Assembly (NCBI GenBank): GCA_950295325.1
Contig: OX485805.1
Location: forward strand, 52,414,758 to 52,478,757
Direction: 5' to 3'
Origin: Polytrichum commune
Taxonomy: Eukaryota > Streptophyta > Polytrichopsida > Polytrichales > Polytrichaceae
DNA length: 64,000 bases
Each line of letters begins with the position of its first letter. Position 1 is the stretch's first letter. Under the pieces are notes generated by a model. The model was not told the origin of the DNA. It worked only from the letters and a program-made list of their open reading frames with translations, and did not search any database. This document shows, in pieces, positions 3,246 through 39,270 of the stretch. The position numbers and the translations under genes are program-made.

Positions 3246-3467
3246 TGGCGTCTGGAGACGCCCTCGCTACACTACGAATTCATCGATTCTCTGGAATTGC
3301 ATCGCTTCAGCTGAATTCCTGCTTCGAAATGTCCAGGAGTTGGCCTCACATGGATCCAGCACACACGCATGTCTGTAAACTTACACCTCTGAGCACCAAA
3401 AGCTGGTCCGGGGAGGTTAAGATCGTTTGTTGAAGCATTGGGGGAAAGCATTTGAAGGTTTGCCGAG

Positions 3468-6400
3468 ATGCAGGCAGTTGTAAGATTGCTGCGGCAGTCG
3501 AGGCCCTCGCTGTTTCAATCCCCGTGGTCTCCAGCTCCGTCAGAGAGAGCCTTCTGGTTTAGCGCTCACCATTTTTATACGTCGAGGAGTGGTGGTACCA
3601 GCAGCGGTAGCGATGAGGAAGGCGCCTTCGTTACCTCTTCGAGCTCCTCAGATGACGATGAGCCTGGGCCGTCGGGGTACGAAGGGGATTCCGAACGGGA
3701 GCGGCGGGCTAAGAATGCAGCCGCTGAATTGCAGGCCATGTCGTTATTGAGAGCCGCCCTTGATGAGGCGGACGAAGAGGGCGAGGGCATTGGAGAAGAG
3801 GATCGGGTCCCTGTGAGAGAGGAGGATCAAATGTCGCTGCGTGTCGGTGTTGTTGGATCTCCGAACGCGGGGAAATCGAAACTTACAAATCGATTGGTTA
3901 GCATTCACATCATTTCTCACATCTTTGCTTTGATATCTTCTGACTTCTCTCTTCTTTCCCTAATTGGGAGGTCAGTACTCCGCCAATCACATGGTACATA
4001 ACCTCCAGTGCATACAGTAGCCATTCGATGTTGACCTAATTCATTGCTGTCTACCTTGCGTGAGGAGGTAATTACTTCAAAGATTATTTTCTGCTACTGA
4101 TTCGACTATGTGGTGGCGGTTTTGGCTTCAGCTTGGGTTTGTTTCGAGTTGTACGTTGAATCGTCTTAATCTCTGTGCATAAATCTCAGTGGATACATAA
4201 GCCAATCAACTGTGATCTAATTCATTACTGTCAGCTTCGCTCGACAGTGTCCTTATTTTCAAGGATTCTATTCTGCTATTGATTCGACTCCCTCAAATCC
4301 CAGGCAGTCGGATGTTTAGGCCTTAAATCTCATTCGTTCTATTTCATGTACAATTGTGATGCCAGCTTTTGCTCCAGTTTGGGTTGTTGTTTTCATTTGT
4401 TTATTGGATTCCCAATCGATGTGCACAAACCTCAGTGCACACATTGGTCATTCAATGCTGACATAATTGATCGGTGTCTACTTTGCTTGTGTGGTAATTA
4501 CTTTCAAGGGTTCTGTTCTGCTACCAAATAAACTGTGCAAAAATCCCAGGCGATCGGAGTTTTAGGGTTTGGCTATAATATCTCATTCGTTCTATTTCAC
4601 GTACAACTGTGGTGCTGGTCATTGTGATCCAGCTTGGTATTGTTTTTCAGTTGTTTAGTGGATCATTTCCCTTTCTATGCATACATTAGCAATTCAATGC
4701 TGACTTACTTTATTAGTGTCAGCTTTGCTCGATGGTGAAACTACTGTCAAGGGTTCTATTCTTACTGATTCGACCATGCACAATCTCAGGCAGTTGGAGG
4801 TTAGGGTTTAGGGCATAAGTTCTTATTTAATTTATCTAGTGTATAAATGTGGTTTTTTTTTTGGCTTCAGCTTGGGTTTGTTTCCATCATCTCAATCTCT
4901 GTGCATAAACCTCAGTGCATATGATAGCCATTAACTTTGACCTAAATCATTAGTGTTGACTTTGCTAGAGGGTAAAACTACTTTCAAGGATGGAATTTTG
5001 CTACCAATTTGACTCTGCAAAATCTTAGGCAGTTGGAGGTTTGAATGGAGGCCTTAAAACCTTATATGTTCTATTTCATGCACGAATATGGTGTTTGTTG
5101 TTTCCGCTTGGGTTTGTTTCCAGCTGTTTCTAGGATCATCTCAATCCCTGGTTTGCAAAAATGCAAACAATTCACACCTGAACTCTTGGAACTGAATTCC
5201 CCTATTAAATTCTACAACACTCTGTTTCTCCTGGGTCATCACCAAGGCACTGAGTCTGTGATGAACAGGGTTCAGGGTTTAGGGTTTAGGTCTGGCCAAT
5301 CTTAGACCATGGGTTCCCACTTATGTCCTAGTTATGGATGTCTTAGTACAAATGCTATACAAAAATTTGTTTGAATCTTTTTTCTACCTCTGGAGATGTA
5401 GTAGCAATTGAAGTCTAAGAGTCTATCATTTGGCTACTCTTCTGCTCTAGTAAAAAGTGAAGCTCTTCAGTTGAAACCCTAAGCTTCTTATCAAGGAAGA
5501 GAACAAGGCTTTTATTTTTCTTGAAAACCCAGGTATTGTTCTCCTGCAGGTTGGGTCAAAAATTTCGGCTGTTTCTAGAAAGACAAATACCACTCACAAG
5601 GAACACATGGGTATCCTCACCAAAGGCAACAAGCAGCTAGTAAGTTTCCTCAAATTTTGAGAGTCATTCTCCTTGTTCCAGGTCGTGAGTTGCCACATAT
5701 CTGTTTATCATGTGATTTCATGAGAAGTAAAAACATTGTAGCCTGAACATCAAGAACATTTTGAGATGAATTTGTTCTTATTTTTGTGCAAGTAATAACA
5801 CAGACATTGTCACCTTGGATGCTATGGTAGATTTTTTTTGATACTCCAGGTTTAACAGTGGACATCAGGGGCCACCCCCTGCGAGTTGACAACCGCAGCC
5901 GAGTGCGCAGTGCGTGGCAGACAGCTGAGCTTTGTGAGGTTCTGATTGTGCTTGTTGATGCACAACGCCAAATTGAAAGGTTGATGCGAGGTTCTCAGGC
6001 TGGATTCTGTGATATGTTGTGCCATGGTCATTAAAACCAACTCCATTAAGATTTGTATTCTCTGTCTTACAGGTGGTCTTTTATCTCACATTTGATCTAT
6101 CAAAGATGGGTTCATGTTGTTGTCTATTTCTATAGTGGCTAGCATATAGACCTCTATTGTTGGGAGGTAGTTTTCCTAGGTTGTTGTCACTTGCTATTTG
6201 GGCATTCATTACTCTCAAACCCCGTTATTGACCTTATTGTTACCTTATTGTTTACAGACCTGATAAGCGAGTAGCTCGCTTGGTTGAAAAGCTTGGGAAC
6301 GAGGAGACAGTTTCACAAAAGAAAGTTTTGTGTCTGAATAAGGTATGTGTCTCTTGTTGGTTTGGAAATGAAAGCATATATTACCATCCTGGCTGTTTGG

Positions 6401-8049
6401 AAGCTTGTAAAAGTCATCAATTATCACCAAGCTCTGTTTGCTGGCAGCCAAGCTTATGCACTTAAAAAATTCAAAATTTATGTAGGTGGATGTGGTGACA
6501 CCCAAGCGGTTGCTGCTACCTTTGGCTGAACAGTATGGAAACCTGCCAGCCTTTGACAGGTTAGTTACTTTTTACAGTGATTGAAACAGGTTCCTCCTTG
6601 TCCTTCACCCTTAACGAATGCAACTTAATTATTAGTTACATATTACTTACATACATATTTTGCAGGGACTAATTTTGTAAGGTGGTCGTCTCAGAAAATG
6701 AGGTGATTTGTGTTGAATCAATATTTAATTGATAAATTCCCTTCACTGTCAAGTAATATCACTATGGTTTGAGGTTATTTGAAATGGTGGACAAATAATG
6801 AGGAGGCAAATATTTTATCATGACTTCTTTTCCTTCCCTTTTCTGATCCAACAATCCTTACTACGTGCACAGTACTTTCATGACCTCAGCGTTGACTGGA
6901 GATGGTGTAGATGAACTGGAGGAGTATTTACTGGATCAGGTAATTTCTATCAAGGGTGCACCTCATTTAATCTGATGAGTAATCCTTGGCTCACCTTTTT
7001 TGAGGATTGTTACATTTCCTGATGGAATGCTGATGTTCTGGTTCTGGGTGGTGTCTCTAGGCTGTCTTAAGACCCTGGGAAGAAGAAGCTGATTCTATCC
7101 CACAGCGGATAGCCAAGGCTACAGCACTTGAGATTGTTCGTCAACACATATTTGATTGCTTGCATAAGGTTCTATTCCTATCCCGAGGTTTACTGTCTTT
7201 GGTTCTTTTTCTGAGCCTTTCCATAAGGAGTTAAATATTTTGTTGTTTTCCTTTGTGCCAGAAGGAAGGGTTGGTTATGCCTCATTGAGCATTTGTGGGT
7301 TGGTCCAAGCTAAAATGATTAGATATTCTTGTTTGGTCCTGGTTTTTGTCACCCTCCGAGTTGCTGGTTCAAATCAAGGTATTGAGATTTTCAACATAAA
7401 ATTTCCTACGGTGTCAAAATTCCTACTGGTTTTAAGTTTTATAAATACAAGTACAAGAACATGTCATGGTCATGTGGGTTGACAGCTCCCAATGTCAAAT
7501 CGACTGGAAATAACAAGAAGTTGATGAAGTGCAGGAGATACCATACAGTATAGAGCAAAGGCATCTATCTTGGAAGTATTTGAAAGATGGTTCCGTCCGA
7601 ATTCAACACCTTTTACTTGTTGAGAAAGAAGGGCACCGCAAGATTTTGATAGGCAAAAATGGCGATGTGATCAGGTTGGACATACCCTTCTAACATGTCT
7701 GTCGGCTCAATTACGTTATTAATGGTTTGTCTAACAAGGAGCACACACATAAAATTCTGGTGTGCTTTTTGTGCTTTCCCACATCTCAGGTTTTCCAGCA
7801 CAGTGTAAGATGTTGGACTTTCTAGTCTATTGTAGAAACTAGAGTTTTATTGAGAATTTTCTAATGCTGCTCTTCAAATGGTGTTTCTGCAGACGCATTG
7901 GTACAGTGGCACGCTTGGAGCTTCAAAAATACTTGAAAAACACTGTTCACTTAGTTCTAGATGTGAAGGTATTAAAGCCAGGGCATACAATCTCCAGCTC
8001 TCTAGAAGAAGTTGGTGGGGATCCTCTGTTTCTACAACAACTAGGGTAG
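3468..8049 (+). CDS. ERG: Era-like GTPase ERG, organellar ribosome assembly
   Basis: Nine exons: 3468-3896, 5550-5639, 5831-5979, 6258-6342, 6486-6559, 6873-6939, 7061-7168, 7535-7674 and 7893-8049. They sum to 1299 nt, 432 aa, with all junctions GT/AG and in phase. Residues 1-45 are Arg/Ser-rich and low in acidic residues, as in a mitochondrial presequence; an acidic linker follows. GTPase motifs: G1 GSPNAGKS 130-137, G2 RKTNTT about 153-158, G3 DTPG 177-180, G4 NKVD 250-253 (split by intron 4) and G5 SAL 281-283. A C-terminal type-2 KH domain has GKNG at 374-377. Era-family proteins bind the 3' end of small-subunit rRNA during 30S-type assembly; plant ERG is the mitochondrial member. A chloroplast Era is less likely given the leader and the closeness to ERG. 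All catalytic motifs are intact. Confidence 0.9.
3985..5170 (+). repeat. Degenerate ~240-bp tandem repeat filling ERG intron 1
   Basis: Five diverged units lie head to tail in intron 1. One landmark (CAGCTTGGGTTTGTTTC and variants) recurs near 4125, 4365, 4625, 4865 and 5100. A second (CTCAGTGCA-ACAT, then CAATGCTGAC-TAATT) recurs near 3995, 4195, 4430, 4670 and 4910. Spacing is 235-260 bp. Each unit also carries CTTTCAAGG-TTCT and a CAGGCAGT-GGAGGTT block. The units make the intron about 1.65 kb, whereas the other ERG introns run from 122 to 366 bp. Confidence 0.75.
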
Positions 8050-9448: not shown

Positions 9449-9502
9449 GAATTGTTGTTTTCTCAACAACATAACTATATGTATTTTTGCAATTGATCAA
9501 CA

Positions 9503-12500
9503 ATGGTGGAGGGAATTGTTGGGACTCCAAATACATCCGCGGCTGGGGCGGCGGAGGACGCCTCCATCCCATTTAAAAGAGATGACGACCAAAACAGCAA
9601 CATACCAAGCAGCGCGACGAATGAGCTATGCGATGCAGCGGTGTTGCAAAAGGTTCAAGACAAGCTCAAGAAACAACTTCTTGACCGCAAGACGGAAGTC
9701 GAGGAACGCATTTACGAGCAAAAGCGGAATTTGGCAAGAGCCACGAAAGACCGCGAAGAAGCGGGCGTGCAACTTTACGATTTGCAATGTAATCTTGCGG
9801 GTCTGCATTTAGGTTTACATGAGGCGACTGCGAAACTTGCGACTACCGCAGAGGCCCACACAAAGGTTCCGAGTCTCAACAAAATATAGTTTGATAGCTG
9901 ACCATACTTATATTCATCCTTATGGCCTAGTACCCAAATACTCTATAACCTCTTCATCGATAGAACTCCAAAAAATGAACGTCTAGCCACCAAATTTCCC
10001 ACAAAGGTTTTCGAAATGCCCACCCTGTAGCAAAGTAGAACTAGACTTCTGGGAAGCCCATCTACGTTGTCAAAGTTTCGATACACAAGTAAGATCATAT
10101 TGTATTCAAAATTATTATTGTATTGAATGATTTTACATGTTTTGGCATACTTAGTTTTTCTCATGTTTATGATGGAAGATTAGGTGCAGAAACTTGTTAT
10201 GAAGGGTTGGGCTCACCAATACAATCAATGGAAATAGTAGCAAAATGTTTGAGTATATGTAAGCAAAATGATTAGAAAATATGTATTTTAAGCACAAACA
10301 TGGTTGTTTGCTTATAACAAAGAATGAACATGGATGATTGATGGACTCTTAAAATAATTGGTTTGACTTGAATTTATGTTGGACCTGAATCTTTGTTTTA
10401 TGCCATTCAAGCCCCGCAATCAATGCTTTGAGCACCCGATTGGGTTTTCAATGAATTGTGACAAAATGGCATACAAATGTTTGTCTATTCAAAGATATCA
10501 ACATCAATATGACTAAGTTGGATGCTTTATTGATGCAACTGTCAAAAGAATTTTTATAAATTATGTCCATTTGGCTCAAAACTTCATTTCCAAGCTTCAG
10601 TTCATTTCAAGAACAAAAATTCCAAAATCATATCATGGGCATCACATTTCATTTATTGGTGTTAGAATCTTACACGTTGATGTCAAAACTCAATAATTTA
10701 TCAAATTCCAAAAAATTGCATTTCTTGTCAATAGGCTTGAATTGTCTTCACCAGTATACATACATACATACATATAGAAAGAAGGATAGTCATACCAATT
10801 ATTTTATATTTATAATTGATATAATAGGTACCCTAAAACCTCAACTGGTGGCAGGCCAGGGAGGAAAATGTTCAAGTGCAAAAGCACTATGATATAAGGA
10901 AGAATGAGTACGACACTCTTCAAGAAAAAACGACTGCAACAAGGCTTGAACTTGACAATTTACAAAACACTTTGAAAAAGTTAGAAGGCTTCAATGAGAA
11001 AATGAAGGGAGAGATCCAATTACAAAGGCGGGCAACATACGGAGGAGAAGAAGAGGTTCTAAGGGTTGAGAGAATTAAAAAAGAACAAGACATCTTGATT
11101 GACGAAATGCAAGAGCGTATCAAACAGTTGCATGAAAAGGTCGCTTTGAAAAAAGCACAACTGGCAGGTCCACATCAATAGCATTTTAACCCTCACTATG
11201 TATGCCACGAAACATTGAGTGTGGACCGCACTAATTTTGAAGCATCTACATTCTTAAAGTTGGTGTGGTCCATAGTTAAATGAGAGTCAACATCAATTCC
11301 AATATTCGCCACACAATTGATGTGTTTGGATGTCCACCACATCAATTTCTTTATATCCAAAATAACATGTGTCATGAAAACAACATGTGTTTTTTTGGGT
11401 TTTGTGACAATGTGATAGGTGAGGAATAGCTAACATTGATCGGCTCTTGATGGAAGTTACTTAAATGAGCTTGGAAGAATATCATTTATTTAATATTGTT
11501 GACTTTTCAATTTCTACTCGAAAATCATATCTTGTTGTTTAGAGATATCCCCGGGGTGCACTACACTAAACACGTAGGACTACACATGAGTGCACAAAAG
11601 GGATATCAATTTAAACTTTTCTGTACTATGTATATATGTACTACACAAATGATTAAGGTTGGAGGATTTTCATAAAATATACAACATTAGTATTTGTTAT
11701 GGTAGTCCAAGGGGTGGACTCTCATAACATGTACAAACTAATGTGAGTGTAAGAAGGGGTAATATTTTAAGCATTAGCGTACATAATATACATAAGGAGG
11801 AGGTATTAGTTTTTACTACTGTGTACATTTTAAAAGAATATAATTTTTTTTTGGTAAATGTATAAAATGGGGCCCTAAGGTTTAGATGATTTTTTTTAAT
11901 AATAGATGTGTTAGTTTCATTTAATTCACATTTTCATCCATTGTTGTCGTATGATAATAATCCTCAATGACTCTTGTTAGGGTTCACATTTGGGTTATAA
12001 GACCAACTAGAGGCTCTTGGAGTGCTTGTGGGCTCCCTTGAGTTTTCCTCTCCGGATTGTAGCTAAGTTATTTAGATATTGTCTTTGTTTGTTTGATGCA
12101 ATCATTGATGCTATGGGTTAAAAAAAAAATTGATGACTTTCTCATTAGAAAGTGAACATGGATTTCACATGTAATAAAGGCATATTTAATTCATAATTTG
12201 TATTTGTATATGTAGTCAAGGTATTTATCACATTAAATTTGAAAAGCCTAGTATAAATACATGAGTCCATTTTCTAGCTTGCGGTTAGCACGTATACAGT
12301 TGTTTTTTCTCTTTAATTTTTTTGTATATAGGGGGTTCAATTTTATATTGACCCACACACGTCATTTAGGTTTCCAATGAAAAGTCCACCCCTTGGGTAT
12401 GGTAATGTCAGTAGACTATACTGCATAAGTTTTTCTTTCAATATCAACTTATGTTGGTATCATAATGGAACCACCAACAAGTGCACAAGTGATCTTACTA

Positions 12501-15500
12501 ACCGTTTGATGGTAGACTTAGAGATAATAAATGCATTAGCTTTTATGACATAGATGCTTTATGAGTTACATCTGGGGGATAAAAAAGTCTTCAACTACTT
12601 TATTGGTGAATGCTAGGGTTTGCATTATACATATGATAGGGGTTGATTGTTATTCAAAAGTATATTTGTATACTTATGTTAACGACTATATAAGCCAAAC
12701 CCATGCAGTATTGTTACGGCTTAAGTCAACCAACACAAAGAAATTTATTTATTTTATGTATGCACATTGCCACTTGTACCATTATCGTTGATATTGTACG
12801 TGTAATACTTAATTTAAAAATAAAAAACTTTAAGATAGGGGGTTTTTAGATTACGATGCAAATGCACATGATTCTTGGTTTTAATGAGAGGTGCACCCCC
12901 TGGGATAGACAAACATTGATGAAAAAGGAGAATGTCATTTTCACAATTGAGTGACTTGGAGGTGGTGTGTCGTTAATGGTAATTGTGTCTAATAACTAGT
13001 GTGAATATTGTATTTAGTGCCACTTACTATTTGGAATTACGCAATGCTATATCTATAGATTATACATCTCATATTTTACCAACAAATGTCGAATTTGTAT
13101 CTTGGACAGTATAGAACATCAACAACTTTACTTGGTTAAAAATTACATCACTAGTAAAACGATATAGCATTGCGTAACCCCAAATACTAAGTGACACTAA
13201 ATACAATGTTTAGTGTAGTAATTGGATTATTTGGCTCACTGATTCAATTCCAAACAAATCCTCAAAATATTTGTTGGGGTAAACCCTAATTATGCACCAT
13301 GATAATTGAAAGAAGAAGACTGGTTTAATATCATTGACTTTTGTATACCTCACTAAACAATTTAAACATGTTTTTTTTCTTTCTCATAAACAAGAGATTG
13401 ATGAGAAAGGACAATGTCAACTTCAAATATGAGTGGCTTTTTGGTGATGCATTATTGATGGTAACCATGTCTAATGACACGATGGTTGGACTATTTAGTC
13501 CACCTCAGTCCAAACAAATCTCAAGTTGACTTAGTCCACCCTAATTAGAGATCCCCAATGTAGAAATACATGGTGGAGTGGTGAGTGGGATCCATATTAA
13601 TGGCACCTCTAAAAAAAAATTCTAAATTGCAAGGATGTTCACTTCGAGTTGAATTGAGTCTACCTAATGAAACATTTCAATGGGTTTTTGATTTCAGCTC
13701 AACAAAGAGAAACGAAGGTCGCCAATGTCGCACTTCAAGAAGCCGATATTGAGATGGATTCGATCAACACCGAGAAACGCCAAATCACGTTTCAGTGGAA
13801 ATCCACTCTCGTTGTATTGAGCCGGTGTGATCTAGCTATTCAGGTCAAACTATAAGACTTCGGCAACTTCAACTTCATGCACTGTCTCTTCAGGTCAAGG
13901 TCAATCGTGCCAAAAATCCACATTCTTCAGCTCAAGAATCACCCTTGGATGACATGATTATAACAAACTTTAAAGAAAAAGAAAAAGAAACCTAGGTAGT
14001 GATGGGCTATAACTTTAAAGCCAACAAATTTGTTTTTTTTATGAGTACCAGTTAGTCAGTTGTGATAACTAAACCTATATAAAAAATTCCGTTTAAGTAT
14101 CCGAGCATAATTGCTTGATTATGTAGTTTTTGTACACTATGTAGTAATCTATGACTCTCCAAGTTGTTCATTACAGGTTTGTTTGAAATTGATCCTAGGT
14201 TCTCAATCATGCCACTTTCATTTTAGATAATTATCTATAGAGATCAGTTATAGGTAAAGGTCATCATTAGGTGTGATTACCATAAAACATGATTGATTCC
14301 GGTGTCCAACAAAACAAATGCCACAAACTTGGTACATTTCAGATTAATTCTTTGTATTAAATGTTAGGAAAATTCTTGTCCGTTGTAACTAGGGATTTGA
14401 AAAATGTGTACACAACTCAATTCAGTTGTCAATGCTTCAGAAATCATGACCAAAAACCTATGGTTGAAAACCGAACTCTATTTAATCATACATTTTGCAC
14501 CAAGGCCCACAATAAACGGTTGGAATGGACAACTTTGTGTTCCCATTTATCGATGTTGTGTAAACCACCCATGGTGGTTGTCGTTGAATGTTTCCAACCT
14601 TGTTGTTGCACTAAAACACGTTTAATGGGACACATAGTTTTGCATGAATGTGTGTGTGTATGAACAGTCATTGTTACAAGCGATTCACGACCAAAGTGAA
14701 CAAATGCTCTCGATCAAGGCCGAGAAGAACAATTATCGAAAGGCTATTGTGATTGAGAATACGAGAGCAGGAAGGTTATTCATCGGCTTGATGAAAGTCG
14801 ACTCGGCCATGAAAGAAGTGCAAAAGAGCATAAACCGTGCGACTAAAAAGAAGACGAAAATGCTTAAACAGCAAGCTAAAATTGCGGTGAAGCTTAAGAA
14901 GGTGGAAGAAAAGATCGAAAGAATCCAAGGAGAGATAGTTGTCATGCAAGAGGAGATCAAGGTATATTTTGACCGCCTGAATCTCACTTGTGCTTGATCT
15001 AGTATATTGCAAGACACATATTTTGCTTCACATGCACATTGAATGTCAGAATTCTTGTCACTTTTTGACACGAGGCAGTAGCACTTGGTCCAATGTGGAT
15101 CTTTGTAACCTTGTATCAAGTTTACATATGAGTTCAAATCTATGTCCAAGGGAAGCAAGTCTTGTTCATGGCAACTTCTAGTTCGCATCATGTGTCTCTC
15201 CCTTTCCTCTTGAAATTTTGCCGCCGAACGTAATCTTTGGATCAATTTGATCCAGAGTATCAAATCTGATTGCTTTGAATGATTTTGCAGGAAACAAATA
15301 AAGTGTACTTGAAAGAGAACACAAAGATCCATGAGCTCGAGAATCGAATTTTGACCCAACTGAAAGAACAAATCACCCTCGAGCAAAAGTCGGCGCACGC
15401 GACGATTTCGAACATCACTGAGTTAAGGAAATTAGTGAAGCAAGAGGACACGATGGCGACGGAGCTCAACTATGATCTCTCCCGCATCCGCGTGGACATC

Positions 15501-18500
15501 CTCAACATACAAGAGTATAATCAAACCGTCGCATCAGCACTGAAGGCGGTGAACGATGAGCTGAATCGGAAGTACAGCCTCATCCGGAAGCTCGAGGCCG
15601 AGATCAAACGGAAGCACCAAGAAATCGAGATGAAGACAAAAGAATACGCTCGACTCCAACGTCAGTTCGAGAAACTGACACGAGGTCTCACAGACCCAAA
15701 CACGACGCCTTGGGAAGCGATGATCAACAGTCTGAAGTCCGAGATCGACGCGAAATCGAAATCTTCGAGCCAGAGCCAGAAGTTGTGGATGACGTTACAG
15801 ACGTCCCTTGTGGCGCTCCAAAACGAGATCAACAACTTGACCGAAAAATCGCAGCTCATGACGTATGAGCAAGGCGTGTTGATTCAACGCAGAACACGAG
15901 TAGATGGCCAATACAATGCGTTGTCGAAAACGATCAAACAGCTCAATATAGGGATTCGCGTGAAGCAAAACATGATCATAAGGTATGAAATCCTCGCTCT
16001 TGCACTTCTGTTGCAGTTGTATTCCGGAATATGCCGGAATATACACATGATTCATATCTGCAATTCCCTTATGAATATATGCACATGTATCTTATTTCGA
16101 TTTTGGAGATTTTGATGTGTCATACACAAACTAATTACATATACTTCATGATTCTTCTCAAGCAACCGTCCATTAGTATAGGAAGTTAGGGACCTCGATG
16201 CACCGCGAAATCATAAACTGCGAAATTATAAACTACGTGCTTTTGTAAACCATGTGCGGTTGGGGGTTGATTACAGATGAGATATTTCTCAATTTTTTTG
16301 TTGGATAATTGGCACCCTATTAGTAGATATGGTTTTAGAACATATAGCCATGGGGTGGAGGTCAGGTGGAGTTAGTTCATATACAAAAGATGTATATGTT
16401 GTTCTTGCATGTTCAATATATTGATCAAACCAACATTGATTTTGTGTAACATGTGTAATGTGGGGAGTTGTTACATTTGTTGTGGTCTTCACATCTTAGC
16501 TCAATTCTTATTGAAATATTTTCAAAATCTTTACTTATTTTGAACTGAATTTCTCACGTATTGACATGCTTGTGGTCTGCACAATTGAGCTCTTCTCGAA
16601 ATCTTTTTAACAAGTTATCACCCGTCAAATTCATCTTGGTCTTTTGAATACTATGATCCCCATACTTCTTACACATTGTCATGGGCCTTCACACAATGTG
16701 ACAAGTGGCATATTATATGACAAGCTAAACATTTGTAGGGGGGGAATATGAAATCCTCCAGAAAACACTAAAAGGAACCAAGATGGAAAATCAAGCTTAA
16801 GAAACCACGGTGTATTGAGGATTACTAATTCAAATGGCAAAATGATTTGGTTTGGGGCCATTAATGAACTTTGTTTCCCTTATACTAACTACTTGTACTT
16901 TGATTATGTAGGCTGAATGATTTGATAGGAAATAATACAACCCTCCAAAAGTCGTTGACAACGGAGAATGAAATTCTACAAATGGATCAAAGAATCGCTC
17001 TAAAGGACTTGGCAAAAGAAACCATGGAGATGCAAACCAAATTAGAAGAACAAAAGGCAGAACGAGACTATGCTCTAAAACACATGAACGAGTTGGAACA
17101 CCATGTGATGTTGTGGAGATACAAAATTACTTTTGAGATCCAAATTCAGGTTCAAATATGCTTAGCCTCGGGAATACTACGTGTGATGTCAAACATATTT
17201 TTATTGACATTTTACTTGGGTCTAAATAAGCAGAACATTCTTAGAAGTGAATTTTTCCTTCAATCCCTTCCTAATTTGTGTAGAATGGGAACCACTTTCA
17301 ACCTCGGGGGGTGCACATTTCATTAAAACCTAGAATCACGTGCGTTCACTGCATCCTCTAAAAACCCCCTATATACAAGTTATTTTTTGTGAAATGAAGT
17401 AATACACATACAATTGCAACAATAAATATACAAGTGATAATATGTATACACAAAAAAACATCCATTCATATATAGTCATTAACATAAGTATACAAATATA
17501 CTTTTGAACAATAATCAACCCCTATAATATGTATAACAAAATATCCTAGCTTTCATCAGCAAAGTCGTTGAAAACTTTTTCATCTCCCGGATGTAACTCA
17601 TAAACATTTGATTCACCAATATGTGTCATTGTAGCCAATGCAATTAATTATTGTCTCTAAGTCTACCATCAAATGATCAGTAAGATCATATGTCCACTTG
17701 TTGTTAGCCCCTTTTTGATACCAACATAAACCAATCTCCACGTTTGATGGACGGTCCATCAAGTCAATTGGATCCCTATACTGCACCCAACGATTACAAA
17801 ACTTCCTCCGCATCCAATATGAAAACTTATGATATGTAGTATAGTAACAATACCATACAAGTACAATTATTGTATACTTTTTAAAGGCCTTCCATATATG
17901 TACGTAACTATAAATTATAACACATATACCATATGTATACGTAATATGGCAAGGTCCAAATCAATACCCCTTCTGTGCACTCACGTATACTCGTACATGT
18001 TTAGTACAGTGCACCCCCCGAGCTTTCAACTAGCACGACATTAGCAAGACTAGATGGATTGTTGCATTTTTTGGGTGCGATGTGTTATCTTGGAATACAA
18101 TGTGGGTACACTTGAAATGGTTGTAATCATATTACAAAACTTCATAAATGCTCGAGAAGTGCCACACCATTTGAAATATAGACCACAACACTGCACTCAT
18201 CTTAACAAGGCGTTGTAAAATGTTTGAGACGAATGTTCACAAAGGTCTACATAATGATTATGTAGTTGTCTTTGCTCTACCAAAAGAAGATAGTAACATG
18301 TATGCAAAGAGACTCATCATATTACCAGTGTCTGAGTCGTAGACATATTTCATTGTGCATTGGTGAGAAAAATATGCAAACCTACCACAACAATAGTTTT
18401 ATCAGACTCTCAATGACGCAAGACAATTTTCATCAATGTAAGATGTGTTCCCCATGACTCATATGCTTTGTAGTGTCGTTATGCTTAAAATTGCTTAAGT

Positions 18501-20225
18501 CATTGTATCCATCCATCATCTATGTTTTTGTGAATGCAGGCATCCATAGACCCTAGCATTGGACAAGCGGACCTTACCGCCATGAGGAAAGATGCGGATC
18601 GGATGCAATCACAACTGGATGGTCTTATTCTAAAACGCAAACAATTGATTGCGGGTCTAGAATCAAAGGTGGACAGCCGCAAGGCAATCAATACCAAAAT
18701 TGAGGTTTGTAAGATTCATCCATCATCGCTCACTTCGGACTATAAGTATAAAGCACATGCTCTCATGAAAACCCTAGTAGAACAATGAAAGAAAACTTGT
18801 TCATTCCAACCATATGTCACAACTTTTCCAGTGCAACTCATGGCACAAGAATGCATAAACAAATCATTTTGGTTGTGAAATGGAGGTTTAGATTGGTTGT
18901 CAATCATCCTAAAATTGGAATCCTTTAGTGGACAACCAAACTGATTTAATTATGAATTTTCTCGCCATGACTTCTGATGGACAAGCTACAACAGATGGTT
19001 GGAAGGAACTAGTTTCCTTCTACTGAAACTTAATATCATCTACTTGAAAATGAATTCCATTGACATCATGATGGATGTGCTAACCTTGTCACCATTGTTC
19101 TTACCGCCGTGTACATACTACTTAATTGTATACCTATATAAATCAAGTCAACCAACTCACAGCTCAAGCAACTACGATAAATGTATACTAGAGTTGCCTC
19201 TTGGTTCAACATAAATTTCTTTTTCAATAAGTAAATTTAAATTGCCACATGTTGTTATTGTGTTGGTTGGGTTGGTAGGTTGTGTACATACATTGTTATT
19301 GCATTCATATATATATATATACACACATACATTGAAGGAAAATGAGAAGGAAAAGATGCTCCAACATGGAAACGTCATGGTGTGACAAATAAAGAGACAT
19401 GTGTGTAAGTGGGTAGATATGTGGGTGGGTGCATTGGTAGGTTGGTAGGTGGTCAGCCACATGTTGATCGCCTAAGCGAGCCCTACTCTTGACACCAAAT
19501 GTCAAGAATTATAATTATCAACATTAATTTGTGTGTGTTTGCATTGGTGTTGTCATTATCCTTCTATACGTCTATCTATTAGAACTCTCCCATTATTCTT
19601 GCAAACTTTAAATGAGCAACAAAAACAATGTTTCTTATCCTCCAATCCACTAAAAGGAGATTCAGCTTGTAGCCTATAAGTAAACTCAGACTGAGAAGAA
19701 AGTGTCACACTAAAATTCATTCAATTTGTACCTAATGCATATTAAAAATAAGTTCTAACCTTTAAGAAGTCCTCTACGGTTATTTGTATTTTATCTAAAG
19801 AATTCCTTTCATCTAAAATTACCTAGCAATAAAATTCAAGCAAGAGGATGTCGTTGAACTTCTTAAACAATTGTAGATAATCTCTTGCTTATCTTGTTCT
19901 AAAACAAATAACATGATAATCATGTAAACCATGACCATCACATAGTCTGATTAGTTAGAATTTATATATACTACGAAGATCATGGGTTGTTTGCCACTAG
20001 AAAGCTCTTTATCGCTACCAAATAGATCTTAAATATCCAAAAATAGTAGTGTCTACTATTTGTATATAATGAGAAAAAACCCAATGACAACAATATGTAA
20101 TTCATGTAGTGTTTGTGCCCAAAAAAAAAGGGTACCTCATGTAGTGTTAAATATACATCTACATTCTAAGGAACCTTCTTGTTGGACTAAATGTCTTACA
20201 CAAATAAACAAATCAATAGCACCAA

Positions 20226-20267
<42 letters not shown>

Positions 20268-23200
20268 AACTCCGTCTTGGATTAGCTGTATAAAATTAAA
20301 ATAGTGTGCAGGCCATGAGCCATCGCAAAGGAATTGAAGGCCCTGCTGGCTTTGAAGCTGGGTTAGTGAAAGCAAATGCAGACTTGAGGAAGGCCATAAA
20401 AGACACCGATAAGAATGCCGTGCACCTTGAACAAAGGTTGAAACATCTTATATTGAGAACACACATCATTGGAGCTTTAAAAAAAAAAAAAAAAAATCAA
20501 CAATAATAATAAGACAATCATGAGGAATATTTTTAAAAAAAAAATTGATATGTCACGTGGAGTTGGAGGTCAGTAGTTTGAAGCCATGATCAAGAGATAT
20601 TCATGTCACTTTTTCAAAGCCTTGGTCACGGGACATAGTGTAAAGCAAACTTAGGAATGGTTTATACTACAAAATCCAAGAGTGGTGACCATGAAAATCT
20701 AGAGGCTCTTCAAAACCATCCAAAGGCCATACCACTTGATACAATATCTAATTTTGCAGTTCATTGGCCCTTAAGAATATTATAAAACGAAAGTGGATCA
20801 TGTTGAGGGATTGCAACATATGTTTAGGTTTGGGTCCCCATCGTGCAAACATATTAATTCTAGGAGACGATGGCAATCCAATCGATTTCCATGGCCCTGG
20901 TTTTTGTGTTAGACCCACCTTTATTCGATGGGCCTAATGCAATATCCAGTAGTTATTTACCATGCGATGCAGCTACCGGATATTTACCATTGCATGATAT
21001 TTTCTTGAAAGACGTTACAACCTGGTCTTAAGGCCCACTTTTATTCGATGGACGTAATGCAATATCTGGTAGCTATTTGTTGCCATTGAGGGTGTCACAT
21101 AGATTTTTTTTAATCCATTCAAATTTCTTTGACAAGTCCCCCAACTGCTCAACCAATGGCATAATATGTATAGCATGGGTCAAGGGCCCTCAAGAACCTA
21201 TGTAAAGTAGGCCTTAAACCATGACGTAGTGTCTTTCAAGAAAATATCATGCAATTGATGGAGAACATTACTATTCCCAAAAAGAATCAACCAAAAAGAA
21301 TGTTTGCTTCAAAATGTGTGGTACTAAGATATATTTCCCCCTTGATGATCACATATTTGGGTTGCCTCGCCACAAAGTTTGGGTGATCACCAAACATTGT
21401 CCAATTATAAACACGTAAAATCTCATATCACTTTCTCGTCCATTTTATGACACGGTCGATCCTTTGCCAATAACCATGCGTGCAGCAAAGTGGGACCGCA
21501 CCTCATTTCTCAACCAACGAAAGGAATTTAAAAAGTGTTGGTCATGGTCCATGGTCACTAGTGTAAACACGCCCTAAGTTCCATAGAAAAGGCATCTCAA
21601 TCTCATTGCCCATGACATGTTTTTGCAGGCTATTGGAGCTTGAAGAACAAAAAGTGACATTCAACAACAAAACGGTGGAGATGAAAGAGAAGCTTGATTT
21701 AATTGTTGCACAACACGAAGAGTGCAGGTTTTCTTTATACAATCCTAGCCGTTAAATACATCACACACATTATGATTGTCATGACTTAATGCACATGGTC
21801 TAGGGTTTTGCCAAGGGAAGCCGGTCCATTCTATTGCACAAATTGCACATGGACCAATGCAATTTTCCAGTTTAATGCATCAGCCCTAGTGCATTCCATG
21901 TGTAAGAATCTTCTCAGATTCCCGCTCTCGGGAGCTACTTACATGTGAAAGGGCACTAATAAGGTACATGGGTGTCATTCGATTTGTTTTTCAAACACTC
22001 CAACTTCTAGTTATTAGTTACGCACAATGAAACTTGTGTTGCATTAACAAATCTACAATGAAGCATCAACAAAAACTGGACTGGAAAATCGGACCTCCCT
22101 GATTTGGTTATGATTCTTGGAAGTACATGTTGTTGATTCCATAACTGAAGACATAGGTCAGTAAATAAATTTTGAAGAGGTAGTCCAACATGGGTCCAAC
22201 GTGGGTCCAACCTCTTCTAAACATGTGTCTTTCTGGTGATTATTCATTGATCGTCATCTAACCACACACCAATCAAATATAGGTGTCCGGTTAAGAAAAA
22301 CAACCAAATAACACTTCCATACTCTATGTGTTGAATCAATGCAGTCTAATGTTGAATTCTCACACAAATCAATAACTCATATTTTAGCATGATGGGGTCA
22401 AGATGGGACAAAATATCAATGAACTTTTTATGCCATTAAGCCCTAAAAGCCTACGAGGACATTTTTGTATGCGTCCTCGTGGTCCCGTGGATCTTGCTAA
22501 AAACAATCGTCTTTAACCCATTTTTGGCCACCTAGTGATTGCTATTATAATTGTCTCTCCCATCTAAAAGCTTGATCATGAAATTGCGTGCATGGTTATT
22601 CTCTATAACTTTGATGATGTGATCCTTTGATTATGCCTCGCAAATTCTCTCCGAGATGGTTCTCGAGAAATCCTTAAATTTCTCATTTTTATTGCATATC
22701 TTGGAAAAGGTTTCACCCCTCATGTCCTTGTAGACCTTTAGGGTCCTTTAGGCACACACTCTGCATTTGGCAAGCTCGTTATGAATGACACTAACGTTAA
22801 ATAATAGATGGTTCTTATAAAAATGTTCATGACCGATCACTCCTTCAGGGACAAAGAGTTGATCGATGTTAAGGTCTCAATGCCTAGCCCCGTCAATGAC
22901 CTATTTTCGAGAAACATCTTAGGTCCCAAGGTGGACAACTACATAGCAACTATGTTAGAGATTGGTATTCAAAAACAAGAAAAAACAATATTATATTAAT
23001 GACCATAATTGAAGTTTGTTGATTATAAATATTAAATTTCAATAAGTAATGTTCATTTTTCTTCTTCTTCTCCTGCTTCTTCTTCTTCTTTGGGGGGGGG
23101 GGGGGGAGGGGTATGTAACAGTGTAGACTATACAAAAAATCTTTGGCTTACAAATGTCATATCTAATTCACACAATGTCTAATTGTTATAAACCCAAATG

Positions 23201-23876
23201 CATTAGCCTCCTTATAGGTTTGCTATATTCGTTGAGAATACATTGAAAAGTTTGAACATGTAGTGGGTGTCAAGTGCTCAATGCCCATTATAGGTGTATC
23301 TTATATTAATGATCAATTCAATAATAAGCAACTTATGAATCTCACCATAATTAAGGTACACTAAAAAAAATTGGTTTACGGCAACCCCACTCTATCCATC
23401 ATCAACCCACATAATTGTCTTGTGATCTTTGGGTAACGACTAATTAAGAAAAAAGGTAACTTATGACACTCGATGATGCTACATGCCAAGTCATGAAGAC
23501 CACTCTAATCAACATGCCACACTCTAAACCATGTTCAGCGTGGTTAAATTAGATATTCAAAGTTTGCAATGACACGTGCATACTATTCTTGCGCAGAGAA
23601 AGGTTGAGAAAAGTGATGATGGCAAGGGCAAAAGCATTGTTGGCGACGGCATTGTACCAAAGGATCGGAAGGCGGCACGAGGATGCCCGAAACAACCGAT
23701 GGAAAGGCTTGTCGTTGAAGAAGACGCTCGAAGAAGAGCTCACGGATGCACAATCGAGGTGCAACACCATTTTGCGAATGATCAATCGGATGATGGCCGA
23801 GTTGCCTAGCTTGCAACCAAAGATGGAGATCTTGGCCATTCAACTAGACCTTGTTATGAGAGCTCCTAGGTGTTGA
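9503..23876 (+). CDS. CCDC40: CCDC40, axonemal 96-nm ruler coiled-coil protein (FAP172 orthologue)
   Basis: Ten exons: 9503-9865, 10855-11167, 13698-13843, 14668-14961, 15291-15982, 16912-17149, 18540-18704, 20312-20436, 21629-21727 and 23597-23876. They sum to 2715 nt, 904 aa, all GT/AG and in phase. The product is nearly all coiled coil after about residue 45. Collinear matches to animal CCDC40 include EEAGVQLYDLQ (exon 1), EADIEMDSINTEKRQITFQW (exon 3), HHVMLWRYKI (near 666-674, human HQIMLWEKKI), the block starting SIDPSIGQADLTAMR (exon 7, human SVDSEIGQTEIRAMK) and LLELEEQK across the exon 8/9 join. CCDC40 pairs with CCDC39 as the molecular ruler that sets 96-nm spacing and docks inner dynein arms and the nexin-dynein regulatory complex. 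The long acidic N-terminus of the vertebrate protein is absent. Expression is expected only in spermatogenous cells. The start follows a TATA-like box. Confidence 0.92.
11550..12902 (-). mobile_element. hAT-like element family F, copy 1 (CCDC40 intron 2)
   Basis: Begins near CCGGGGTGCAC and ends near GTGCACCCCCTGG, an imperfect terminal inverted repeat matching family copy 2. The interior matches the reverse complement of 17303-18022 in many blocks, for example AGGGGTTGATTGTTATTC and AAGTATATTTGTATACTTAT near 12640-12680. It is longer than copy 2 because it contains a nested element at 11705-12396. No transposase remnant was seen. Confidence 0.7.
11705..12396. mobile_element. Second DNA element nested inside family F copy 1
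   Basis: Inverted ends CCAAGGGGTGGACT (from 11707) and AGTCCACCCCTTGG (to 12396) are exact complements. The flanks TTATGGTA (11697-11704) and GTATGGTA (12397-12404) agree at 7 of 8 positions, an 8-bp target duplication as made by hAT elements. Removing it brings copy 1 of family F to about the length of copy 2. Confidence 0.75.
12995..13222. mobile_element. Foldback MITE in CCDC40 intron 2
   Basis: Arms of about 47 bp at 13007-13053 and 13161-13207 are near-perfect inverted complements (ATTGTATTTAGTGCCACTTA against TAAGTGACACTAAATACAAT, and TACGCAATGCTATATC against GATATAGCATTGCGTA). Outer ends resemble the CTACACTAAA ends of family B. A transcript would fold into a long hairpin. Confidence 0.75.
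17303..18022 (+). mobile_element. hAT-like element family F, copy 2 (CCDC40 intron 6)
   Basis: Perfect 14-bp terminal inverted repeats, CTCGGGGGGTGCAC and GTGCACCCCCCGAG. A perfect 8-bp target-site duplication CTTTCAAC stands at 17295-17302 and 18023-18030. Length is 720 bp with no transposase, so it is non-autonomous. The 8-bp duplication places it with the hAT superfamily. Intact ends suggest it is younger than copy 1. Confidence 0.88.
20229..20266 (+). repeat. (CT)19 microsatellite before CCDC40 exon 8
   Basis: Nineteen CT units end 45 bases before the exon 8 acceptor, so the tract doubles as an extended polypyrimidine region. Confidence 0.9.
20650..21578. mobile_element. Possible inverted-repeat element in CCDC40 intron 8
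   Basis: The left end CTTAGGAATGGTTTATACTA and the complement of the right end, CTTAGGGCGTGTTTACACTA, are similar. A third such end stands at 63927. Inside, a ~60-bp block with TTTATTCGATGG and TAATGCAATATC occurs twice (about 20920 and 21040). No target duplication was found. Confidence 0.4.
23061..23106 (+). repeat. CTT-rich run followed by 15 G
   Basis: An impure CTT tract runs into fifteen consecutive G at 23092-23106 in the last CCDC40 intron. G runs of this length are prone to sequencing and assembly error and could form G-quadruplexes. Confidence 0.8.
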
Positions 23877-37110: not shown

Positions 37111-37527
37111 TCTCTCGCCCTCCCTCTTTTTGCCTCCTCGGCGAGCGTGGACCAGTTCTCGCCCGGCCGCTTGCCTCATGCTTCCACGCTCCTGGCCATC
37201 GCCATCTCTTCTGGTACGTAGGCCGTTCCCAGCGCTCTCTTCCGACCCTCTCCGATCAACTTGTCGAGGCGTATTGTGGGTTTTCTTCTTGATCTAGGGT
37301 TTGGTAGTTACAAAAGGGGTAGGGTTCGCTTCTCCTTCTTGGCAACTACTTACCGCGCGGGGGCTTGGTTGGTAGGGCGGGGGAGTTACATTGCATTACA
37401 TTGTGGTTGTGGTTGTGAAAGGGTTTGGTGTCTGGTGATGGTTTGTGATGATGCTTCTGTGTTTGTGTGCGTAGGGTGGTGGGGTTTGAAGACGCAAGGG
37501 GGCTGGTAGGACAGGTTAGGATTGGGG

Positions 37528-39270
37528 ATGGACTCTGACCAGGGGAAGCTCTTCATCGGAGGCATATCATGGGAGACAACCGAGGAGAAGTTGCGGGACT
37601 ATTTCAAGAGTTACGGGGAGGTTGCGGAGACTGTGATCATGAAGGACAGGGCTACAGGGCGTGCTCGAGGGTTTGGATTCGTCATCTTCTCCGACCCTAC
37701 TGTAGCGGATCGGGTGGTGCTGGAGAAGCATACCATTGATGGGAGAACGGTAAGTTTAAGTTTAAGCCTCTCTCTCTCTCTCTATGTGACATACCTATGT
37801 GGAATGTGGTGGTGGTGATGTGTGTGAGGGTTTGTGATAGTTACTACACATGAGGGGAGGGGGAATGAAGGAATGCAGAAAAAGGCTTTATGTCATAGTT
37901 TATAACTTAGTTTAGCTGTCTGTCTTTCTTAAACTTTCTCTATCTAGGTGGAAGCGAAAAAAGCCGTGCCGAGGGATGAGCAGCAAAATGTCCCTAGGAG
38001 CAACAACCAAGGGGGCACAGGGCCCGCGTCGTCTCTCACTAGGACAAAGAAGATATTTGTGGGGGGCTTAGCCTCAACAGTTACTGAGGATGACTTCAAA
38101 AAGTATTTCGAGCAGTTTGGTACTATTACAGATGTGGTTGTAATGTATGACCACAATACTCAAAGGCCTCGTGGGTTTGGCTTCATCACGTTTGATTCTG
38201 AGGATGCAGTTGAAAATGTGATCACAAAGTCTTTCCATGAGCTCAACGAGAAGATGGTGGAGGTGAAGAAAGCCATCCCCAAGGAGCTGTCTGCAGGAAC
38301 CGGCGGGGGTCGGGCTGCCGGTGGTTTTGGAGGCGGAGGGCGAGGTGGGAACTATGGATCTGGCTATGGCCAAGGCTACTCCAGCCCCGTTGGCGGCAGT
38401 GGCTATGGCAGCCGAGGAGATGTCCGGTATGGCCAGGTCTCTGGAGGCAGGGGTGGTTATGCCGGATATGGTGCGGCAGGCTATGGAAGTGCTGGCTATG
38501 GGAGCAGTGGGTATGGTGCTGGTATGAATGGAGGCTATGGCGGAAGTGGTTATGGGAATGGAGGTTATGGCAGTGCTGGAGGGAGCTTTGGAAGTGCGGG
38601 CTACACCAGCAATCCAAGCGCAGGTGGATATGGTAGTACTGGCGGGTATGGTAGCGGAGGTGCTGTTAGTGGTGGTTATGGCAGTGCACCTGCTGGAGGG
38701 AGAAGTGCTTGGGGAAGTGGAGCAGCAGGTTATGGTGCAGGTGGAAGCTCGACGCCCTACGGAGGCACTGGTGCTGGGAGCATGAGCGGATATGGCAATG
38801 CGGCCTGGGGGACAACTGGGGCTGGTGTAGGTCAGGCTACTGGGAGCACCACTGGATATGGGAGTGGTGGATATGGCTATGGAAGCAGTGATAGTGGTTA
38901 TGGATCCTCTGGATATGGTGGACGGGGAAGTGGCTATGGATCTGGTGCGGGATATGGAAGCTCAGCAGGTGGAACAGGCAGTGCGAGCTTTGCTGGAGGC
39001 TACGGGGATGCTTACACATCAGGATACTCAGACAATACTTGGAGATCAGCTGGAACCGATTCCTACAGTGCCAACCCAACAGGATCAGTGGGTGCTGGAA
39101 GTGGTGGGGGCTACAGTATTGGGGGTGGTGGCGCTGGTGGCGCTGAAGCGGCCGTTAATGGAACCACGGCTGGCTATGGGGGAGGCTATGGTGTAGCTGG
39201 CAGGCAGACACAGCGAGGTCCTGATGCTCGTTTCAGGCCCTACCCTGCTGCTGGTGACCGCACTGGATAG
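37528..39270 (+). CDS. Two-RRM glycine-rich hnRNP (RBGD/RNP1 type)
   Basis: Two coding exons, 37528-37749 and 37948-39270, joined in phase 0 (222 + 1323 nt), give 514 aa. RRM1 has RNP2 LFIGGI at 8-13 and RNP1 RGFGFVIF at 47-54. RRM2 has RNP2 IFVGGL at 110-115 and RNP1 RGFGFITF at 149-156. From about residue 195 the protein is low-complexity Gly/Ser/Tyr/Ala with many GYG, SGYG and GSAGYG repeats, a prion-like tail of the kind that drives condensation. It is a plant nuclear/cytoplasmic RNA-binding protein related to animal hnRNP A/B and Musashi, likely acting in splicing, export or stress-granule biology. The start is the ATG of MDSDQ; no better upstream ATG is in frame. The paralogue cannot be named from sequence alone. 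Confidence 0.92.

What the first reader, a model, noticed from the sequence alone, without database searches (positions are those of the whole stretch)
9503..23876. Complete CCDC40 in a land plant: marker of flagellated sperm
All ten exons join in phase to 904 aa, collinear with animal CCDC40 from the LYDLQ block to the C-terminal helix. Flowering plants and conifers lack axonemes, so an intact copy under coding constraint says this plant swims its sperm. The vertebrate acidic N-terminal extension is absent, leaving the coiled-coil ruler core. It can serve to test how the 96-nm ruler was kept in plants, some of which have lost outer dynein arms.
Basis: partly seen in the sequence, partly recalled or inferred. 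Interest (0 to 1): 0.8.

Follow-up and report, generated by a model that had tools for sequence, protein, structure and literature searches.

The report
Moss CCDC40, the axoneme ruler protein
This is an ordinary, intact copy of CCDC40, probably from a moss: one half of the coiled-coil ruler that spaces the motors and spokes of swimming cilia, as expected in a plant whose sperm swim.

Summary
Ten GT/AG exons at 9503-23876 (+) join in phase to 904 aa with no internal stop. The protein matches Chlamydomonas FAP172 over residues 44-888 (E 3.9e-99); of 6 PDB sequences found at E up to 0.001, five are named CCDC40/FAP172 and one 'Coiled-coil protein, putative'. All 10 genome matches lie at this locus. 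A CCDC39/FAP59 partner lies on another contig, with RSP3, a GAS (DRC4-type) gene and eight dynein heavy-chain loci. The plant is probably a moss, from LEAFY (narrow score margin; PMC6588583). The dyneins look like an I1 pair plus six single-headed chains; no outer-arm chain was found, which agrees with print but is not proof of absence. Core length is conserved: 692 residues against 692 in Chlamydomonas. So the gene call is right and the swimming-sperm inference well supported, but little is new: a moss ccdc39 mutant is already known to be male-sterile. One loose end: CCDC39 here is strongly diverged at a run (QAYYVIKAAQE) invariant in human, Tetrahymena and Chlamydomonas. Interest low; new member of a known kind.

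The parts
9503..9865 (+). CCDC40 exon 1 (ATG 9503; residues 1-121, contains the LYDLQ block)
   Evidence: stop-to-stop frame 9497-9889 puts an in-frame stop 6 nt before the ATG; genome match over 1-124
10855..11167 (+). CCDC40 exon 2
13698..13843 (+). CCDC40 exon 3
14668..14961 (+). CCDC40 exon 4
15291..15982 (+). CCDC40 exon 5 (longest, 692 nt)
16912..17149 (+). CCDC40 exon 6; its junction with exon 7 falls in a gap-free block aligned to FAP172 (...MLWRYKITFEIQIQ|ASIDPSIGQ...)
18540..18704 (+). CCDC40 exon 7
20312..20436 (+). CCDC40 exon 8 (near here Chlamydomonas has 19 more residues)
21629..21727 (+). CCDC40 exon 9
23597..23876 (+). CCDC40 exon 10 with stop codon (C-terminal helix)

Best explanation
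It is the single-copy CCDC40/FAP172 orthologue of a land plant, probably a moss. In the sperm flagella the 904-aa protein would pair with CCDC39/FAP59 into a long coiled coil on each outer doublet, laid end to end, whose fixed length sets the 96-nm repeat and marks where radial spokes, N-DRC and inner dynein arms dock. Shown here: the gene, its open frame, single locus, full-length match, conserved core length, and presence of genes for the partner, spoke, N-DRC and inner-arm parts. Inferred from other species: pairing, position on the doublet, ruler action, expression in antheridia.
For: Exon chain; full-length match to FAP172 at E 3.9e-99 and to 5 further chains, no other named family at E up to 0.001; 10 of 10 genome matches, from 48 candidates, at this one locus; core of 692 residues in both plant and alga; CCDC39: five collinear exon matches at C6:10449714-10455321 from 15 candidates, hand-joined exons hit FAP59 at E 6.4e-82 and the 6 hits are the chains that recalled human CCDC39 also found; RSP3, 4 matches of 8 candidates; GAS, 3 matches of 39 candidates, best 58.3 bits against a cut-off of 32.3; eight dynein heavy-chain loci by two domains. 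Ruler role and CFAP91 binding of CCDC39: PMC9776847 (passages). Moss ccdc39 mutant male-sterile: PMC8648619 (passages).
Against: Nothing found contradicts it. Weak points: no transcript, no dN/dS, no test of pairing. NYD-SP28 (DRC1/2) gave 0 matches of 10 candidates, but its controls were silent everywhere. The GAS control rang, below cut-off, in 4 of 14 prokaryote genomes. The partner CCDC39 is strongly diverged at a run invariant in human, Tetrahymena and Chlamydomonas, so the pair may differ in detail from the algal one.
Confidence: 0.96

Rival explanations
1. Another long coiled-coil family that resembles CCDC40 through heptad composition.
For: Pfam gave four weak hits, all below their cut-offs (FliJ, DUF3450, BRE1, Laminin_II).
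Against: Full-length match to FAP172 and CCDC40 chains with no CCDC39 among the 6 hits. CCDC39 is a separate gene in the same genome. 200 of 200 block shuffles score below zero.
Confidence: 0.01
2. A decaying copy in a lineage that no longer needs it.
For: No expression data; the partner CCDC39 is diverged at one conserved run.
Against: 904 codons open, nine canonical introns, 224 of 690 aligned core residues identical to Chlamydomonas, core length unchanged; eight dynein heavy-chain loci, RSP3 and GAS present.
Confidence: 0.02
3. The gene is real but used outside the sperm flagellum.
For: Not excluded by sequence.
Against: Other axonemal genes are present. In Physcomitrella the only ciliated cells are the male gametes (PMC4947347, passages).
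Confidence: 0.02

Closest known systems
Chlamydomonas FAP172 (7ju4_B, 8glv)
   Same: 904 aa in both; residues 44-888 against 28-892; core 692 against 692 residues, 224 of 690 aligned identical.
   Different: Chlamydomonas has 19 more residues near plant residue 754. Chlamydomonas has outer-arm heavy chains (7kzm, recalled as its outer arm); none was found here.
Human CCDC40 (8j07_h3, 1142 aa; species recalled)
   Same: Collinear from residue 52 to 889 (chain 296-1126), 172.5 bits.
   Different: The chain has 295 residues before the match, this protein 51.
Physcomitrium patens CCDC39 (Meyberg et al. 2020, not held; seen as cited in PMC8648619 and PMC8128824)
   Same: The other half of the same ruler, in a moss; mutant is male-sterile and the gene is cited for proper flagella formation.

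Membership tests
CCDC40/FAP172 | Full-length similarity to FAP172/CCDC40 better than to CCDC39 or any other coiled coil | tested here: met
   6 hits at E up to 0.001: five named CCDC40/FAP172, one 'Coiled-coil protein, putative'; no CCDC39 chain
CCDC40/FAP172 | Coiled-coil ruler core of constant length | tested here: met
   692 residues against 692 in FAP172 between residues 44 and 735; the end point was chosen after seeing the alignment, and there is no control set of other coiled coils
CCDC40/FAP172 | CCDC39/FAP59 partner in the same genome | tested here: met
   C6:10449714-10455321; hand-joined exons E 6.4e-82 to FAP59
CCDC40/FAP172 | Forms a heterodimer with CCDC39 on the outer doublet and sets the 96-nm repeat | not testable with these tools
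   needs biochemistry or cryo-ET of the sperm
CCDC40/FAP172 | Expressed in cells that build motile cilia | not testable with these tools
   no RNA data held
Moss (source organism) | LEAFY of the moss type, nearest to a moss LEAFY | tested here: inconclusive
   GLDYLFDLYEQC in both LEAFY loci read, of four found. A 53-aa piece of one scores 91.6 bits to 4bhk (recalled as Physcomitrium), 89.8 and 89.5 to 9g19 and 9fwy, 81.7 to 2vy1: a narrow margin. That D at site 312 marks type II is recalled; that type II is mainly in mosses with one liverwort exception is from PMC6588583
Axoneme without outer dynein arms | No outer-arm heavy chain gene | tested here: inconclusive
   Same 8 loci by two domains, 2 of them with DHC_N1 upstream; the 7 compared with the PDB rank inner-arm or unnamed chains first; a missing match in this genome does not show absence

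The most novel reading that the evidence does not exclude
In this plant the two halves of the ruler evolve under different rules: CCDC40 keeps its exact algal core length, while CCDC39 has diverged at a patch that is invariant in human, Tetrahymena and Chlamydomonas (QAYYVIKAAQE, here VEFFLNKLKTE). That patch would be a docking site for a partner lost or changed in outer-arm-less plant sperm, so the ruler could be read as a map of what the plant axoneme discarded. (Odds lowered from 0.12 to 0.10 on re-checking: the stretch is diverged but still recognisable, not lost.)
Probability: 0.1. Interest if true: 0.45.

Novelty: new member of a known kind. Interest (0 to 1): 0.18.

Why it matters
It indicates that a plant, probably a moss, with no detectable outer-arm dynein keeps both ruler subunits, radial-spoke and N-DRC genes and what looks like an eight-gene inner-arm set. 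That makes such sperm a clean system for asking what the ruler does when only inner arms need placing. The gene itself is an expected orthologue and changes nothing in how mosses are understood to reproduce.

Tried and rejected
BRE1 (PF08647): 0 matches of 21 candidates, uninformative. TPH (PF13868): 3 matches of 5 candidates on C1 and C6, not pursued. NYD-SP28 for DRC1/2: 0 of 10 candidates with silent controls, no conclusion. ODAD1_CC: 0 of 8 candidates; the controls that rang were 3 prokaryotes below cut-off, so no conclusion about the docking complex.

Literature: two searches with CCDC40 plus plant terms listed 25 of 1,240 papers and 10 of 2,031; among those rows only PMC9632326 holds the word CCDC40, as one name in a list of marker genes (passages). 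A search for CCDC39, moss and spermatozoid found 2 papers. I therefore do not claim that moss CCDC40 is undescribed. Meyberg et al. 2020 is not held; Hyams and Campbell 1985, Hodges et al. 2012 and Oda et al. 2014 were seen only as citations.

I considered the absent N-terminal extension as a plant feature and rejected it. I considered a missed exon as the cause of the odd CCDC39 run: a pattern scan of the 9.7-kb locus printed two stretches, one YYVIK at 5495 that lies out of order and runs into a stop, and the EREEVQ stretch itself at 7854. A forward-frame BLOSUM scan ranks VEFFLNKLKTEREEVQSRGA (7824) first with 32 and the next stretch with 19. The reading 7761-7907 as one exon with donor GT after 7119 upstream is collinear with FAP59, but an acceptor-like AG at 7850 would cut the run off, so transcripts are needed. 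Structure prediction was not run, as a single long coiled coil would not test pairing.

Full report
The gene. Ten exons on the + strand (9503-9865, 10855-11167, 13698-13843, 14668-14961, 15291-15982, 16912-17149, 18540-18704, 20312-20436, 21629-21727, 23597-23876) join to 2715 nt and 904 aa with one stop, at the end; nine of nine introns (329-2530 nt) begin GT and end AG. The ATG at 9503 lies 6 nt after an in-frame stop (frame 9497-9889). The two other frames of the spliced sequence hold 69 and 44 stops.

What it is. phmmer against all PDB sequences returned 6 distinct sequences at E up to 0.001: Chlamydomonas FAP172 (E 3.9e-99, residues 44-888 on 28-892), four chains named CCDC40 and one named only 'Coiled-coil protein, putative' (8tek_O; Tetrahymena by recall). 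Pfam gave four hits, none above its cut-off. Shuffling the protein in 7-residue blocks, which keeps local coiled-coil composition, destroyed the match in 200 of 200 trials (best -5.1 bits against 333.5 for the true order). Between residues 44 and 735 the two proteins have 692 residues each, with three gaps of 1-2 residues, and 224 of 690 aligned residues identical. I chose that end point after seeing the alignment, just before a 19-residue difference near residue 754, and I have no control set of other coiled coils; so constant length agrees with a ruler but does not prove one. In the whole genome the protein matches ten places, from 48 candidates, all of them exons of this locus.

The N-terminus. 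The match to the 1142-aa chain 8j07_h3 (human by recall) starts at its residue 296 and at residue 52 here. The chains of 872, 875, 893 and 904 aa also match from near their starts, so the extension is what is special, not its absence.

The plant. The genome has 408 Mb in 64 contigs. The evidence for its group is LEAFY: four SAM_LFY matches. The two loci read both hold GLDYLFDLYEQC. A 53-aa piece of the first scores 91.6 bits to 4bhk (recalled as Physcomitrium), 89.8 and 89.5 to 9g19 and 9fwy (which print N where this has D), and 81.7 to 2vy1 (which prints H). The margin is narrow; the D is the better clue. PMC6588583 (passages) sorts LEAFY by sites 312, 345 and 387, finds type II mainly in mosses with one liverwort exception, and reports types I and II together in mosses outside Bryopsida. 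That the D is site 312 and marks type II is recalled. I take a moss as likely, not certain. Five contig lengths were seen (77.9, 70.3, 59.2, 44.7, 42.1 Mb); about seven chromosomes would fit, a guess.

The rest of the axoneme. CCDC39: five collinear exon matches to FAP59 on C6 from 15 candidates; the hand-joined exons (686 aa, with about 20 residues of intron included by mistake) hit FAP59 at E 6.4e-82, and the 6 hits are the same chains found with recalled human CCDC39. RSP3: 4 matches of 8 candidates at two loci. GAS (DRC4-type, recalled): 3 matches of 39 candidates at one locus, over the cut-off; the control rang below cut-off in 4 of 14 prokaryotes. Dynein heavy chains: Dynein_C gave 27 matches from 28 candidates and the stalk domain MT gave 19 from 27; both sets fall in the same eight loci.

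Dynein types. DHC_N1 gave 9 matches from 11 candidates at two places, C2:14.62 and C1:55.66-55.67 Mb. They lie on the same strand and some 55-65 kb upstream of two of the eight C-terminal ends, with MT matches between, so I take them as the same genes. Their C-terminal ends rank first with 8glv_Cn and then DNAH10 (E 3.2e-150 and 2.1e-120), and with Dynein-1-beta and then DNAH2 (E 1.5e-109 and 1.6e-78): the I1 pair. Of the other six, three were compared alone. Their first hits are 8glv_Kg, DHC2 and 8glv_JG, with DNAH3, DNAH1 and DNAH3 as the nearest correctly named human chains; lists were cut at E 1e-40, 1e-40 and 1e-60, so weaker outer-arm hits were not shown. Two (L006, L012) were compared in one joined query whose top hits are DNAH7 and unnamed 8glv chains (365 to 325 bits for the first five), with DNAH5 at 125 and outer-arm alpha at 111. 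One (L010) was not compared with the PDB but is 64.6% identical to L005. That DNAH1, 3 and 7 are single-headed inner-arm chains is recalled.

Outer arms. No outer-arm or DHC1b candidate appeared, but the tool warns that a missing match does not show absence. It agrees with print: PMC4415241 (passages) counts moss and fern among organisms lacking outer-arm dynein, citing Hyams and Campbell 1985; PMC12637542 (a preprint; passages) names P. patens as lacking outer arms and keeping inner arms. Against reading too much into the missing DHC1b: PMC4947347 (passages) reports dynein-1b and IFT transcripts in the fern Marsilea.

How it most likely works. PMC9776847 (passages) describes CCDC39/CCDC40 as molecular ruler proteins that determine radial spoke position (citing Oda et al. 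2014, not read) and shows by pull-down that Tetrahymena CFAP91 binds CCDC39. By homology this protein does the same in the sperm flagella. In P. patens a ccdc39 mutant is male-sterile (PMC8648619, passages), and PMC8128824 (passages) cites PpCCDC39 for proper flagella formation. The functional prediction for CCDC40 follows closely.

A result beyond the simple reading. The run QAYYVIKAAQE is invariant in the three-sequence CCDC39 alignment of Chlamydomonas, Tetrahymena and human (columns 641-651). Here the aligned stretch is VEFFLNKLKTE: only the last residue is identical, with YY read as FF. It is still the best match to the motif in the forward frames of the 9.7-kb locus (score 32, next 19). 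The chain 9y6s_4R is also degenerate there, so such divergence is not unique to this plant. I cannot say what binds there, and an alternative acceptor at 7850 in L013 leaves the exon edge open.

Verdict. The finding is correct and carefully read, and ordinary: an expected orthologue in what is probably a lineage already known to have swimming, outer-arm-less sperm. Its value is as one more data point for how the ruler is kept when outer arms are lost.

Noticed in passing
L013 (G000:C6:10448200-10457900), 7824-7856 in the locus: CCDC39 of this plant reads VEFFLNKLKTE where human, Tetrahymena and Chlamydomonas share the invariant run QAYYVIKAAQE.
   Followed up: partly
window 12449-12909 and 17298-17729: Introns 2 and 6 of CCDC40 carry copies of one element of about 450 bp in opposite orientation (four arm pairs, 76-94% complementary), bracketing exons 3-6.
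   Followed up: no
window 12988-13226: A further inverted repeat inside intron 2, arms 102 nt, 75% complementary, 35 nt apart.
   Followed up: no
G000: C1:15.1, C1:51.3, C1:55.6, C2:14.6, C3:44.2, C6:10.0, C6:24.1 and C7:0.14 Mb: Eight dynein heavy-chain loci by two domain searches, two with DHC_N1 upstream: looks like the I1 pair plus six single-headed inner-arm chains, with no outer-arm or IFT dynein found.
   Followed up: partly
window 3456-3998 (+): Open frame with a 50S ribosome-binding GTPase motif (MMR_HSR1, just over its cut-off), upstream neighbour of CCDC40.
   Followed up: no
window 37510-39267 (+): Two open frames, each with one RRM, the second glycine-rich: an hnRNP-like gene, downstream neighbour.
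   Followed up: no
G000: C1:40.6, C1:62.3, C7:8.6 and C7:14.0 Mb: Four SAM_LFY (LEAFY) matches; the two loci read both have D at the YLF-D-LYEQC site.
   Followed up: partly
PDB entry 9fqr: Chains of dynein length carry names of other proteins (for example 'putative malate dehydrogenase 1B' at 4069 aa and 'Radial spoke head protein 9 homolog' at 4583 aa), so molecule names of this entry need care.
   Followed up: no
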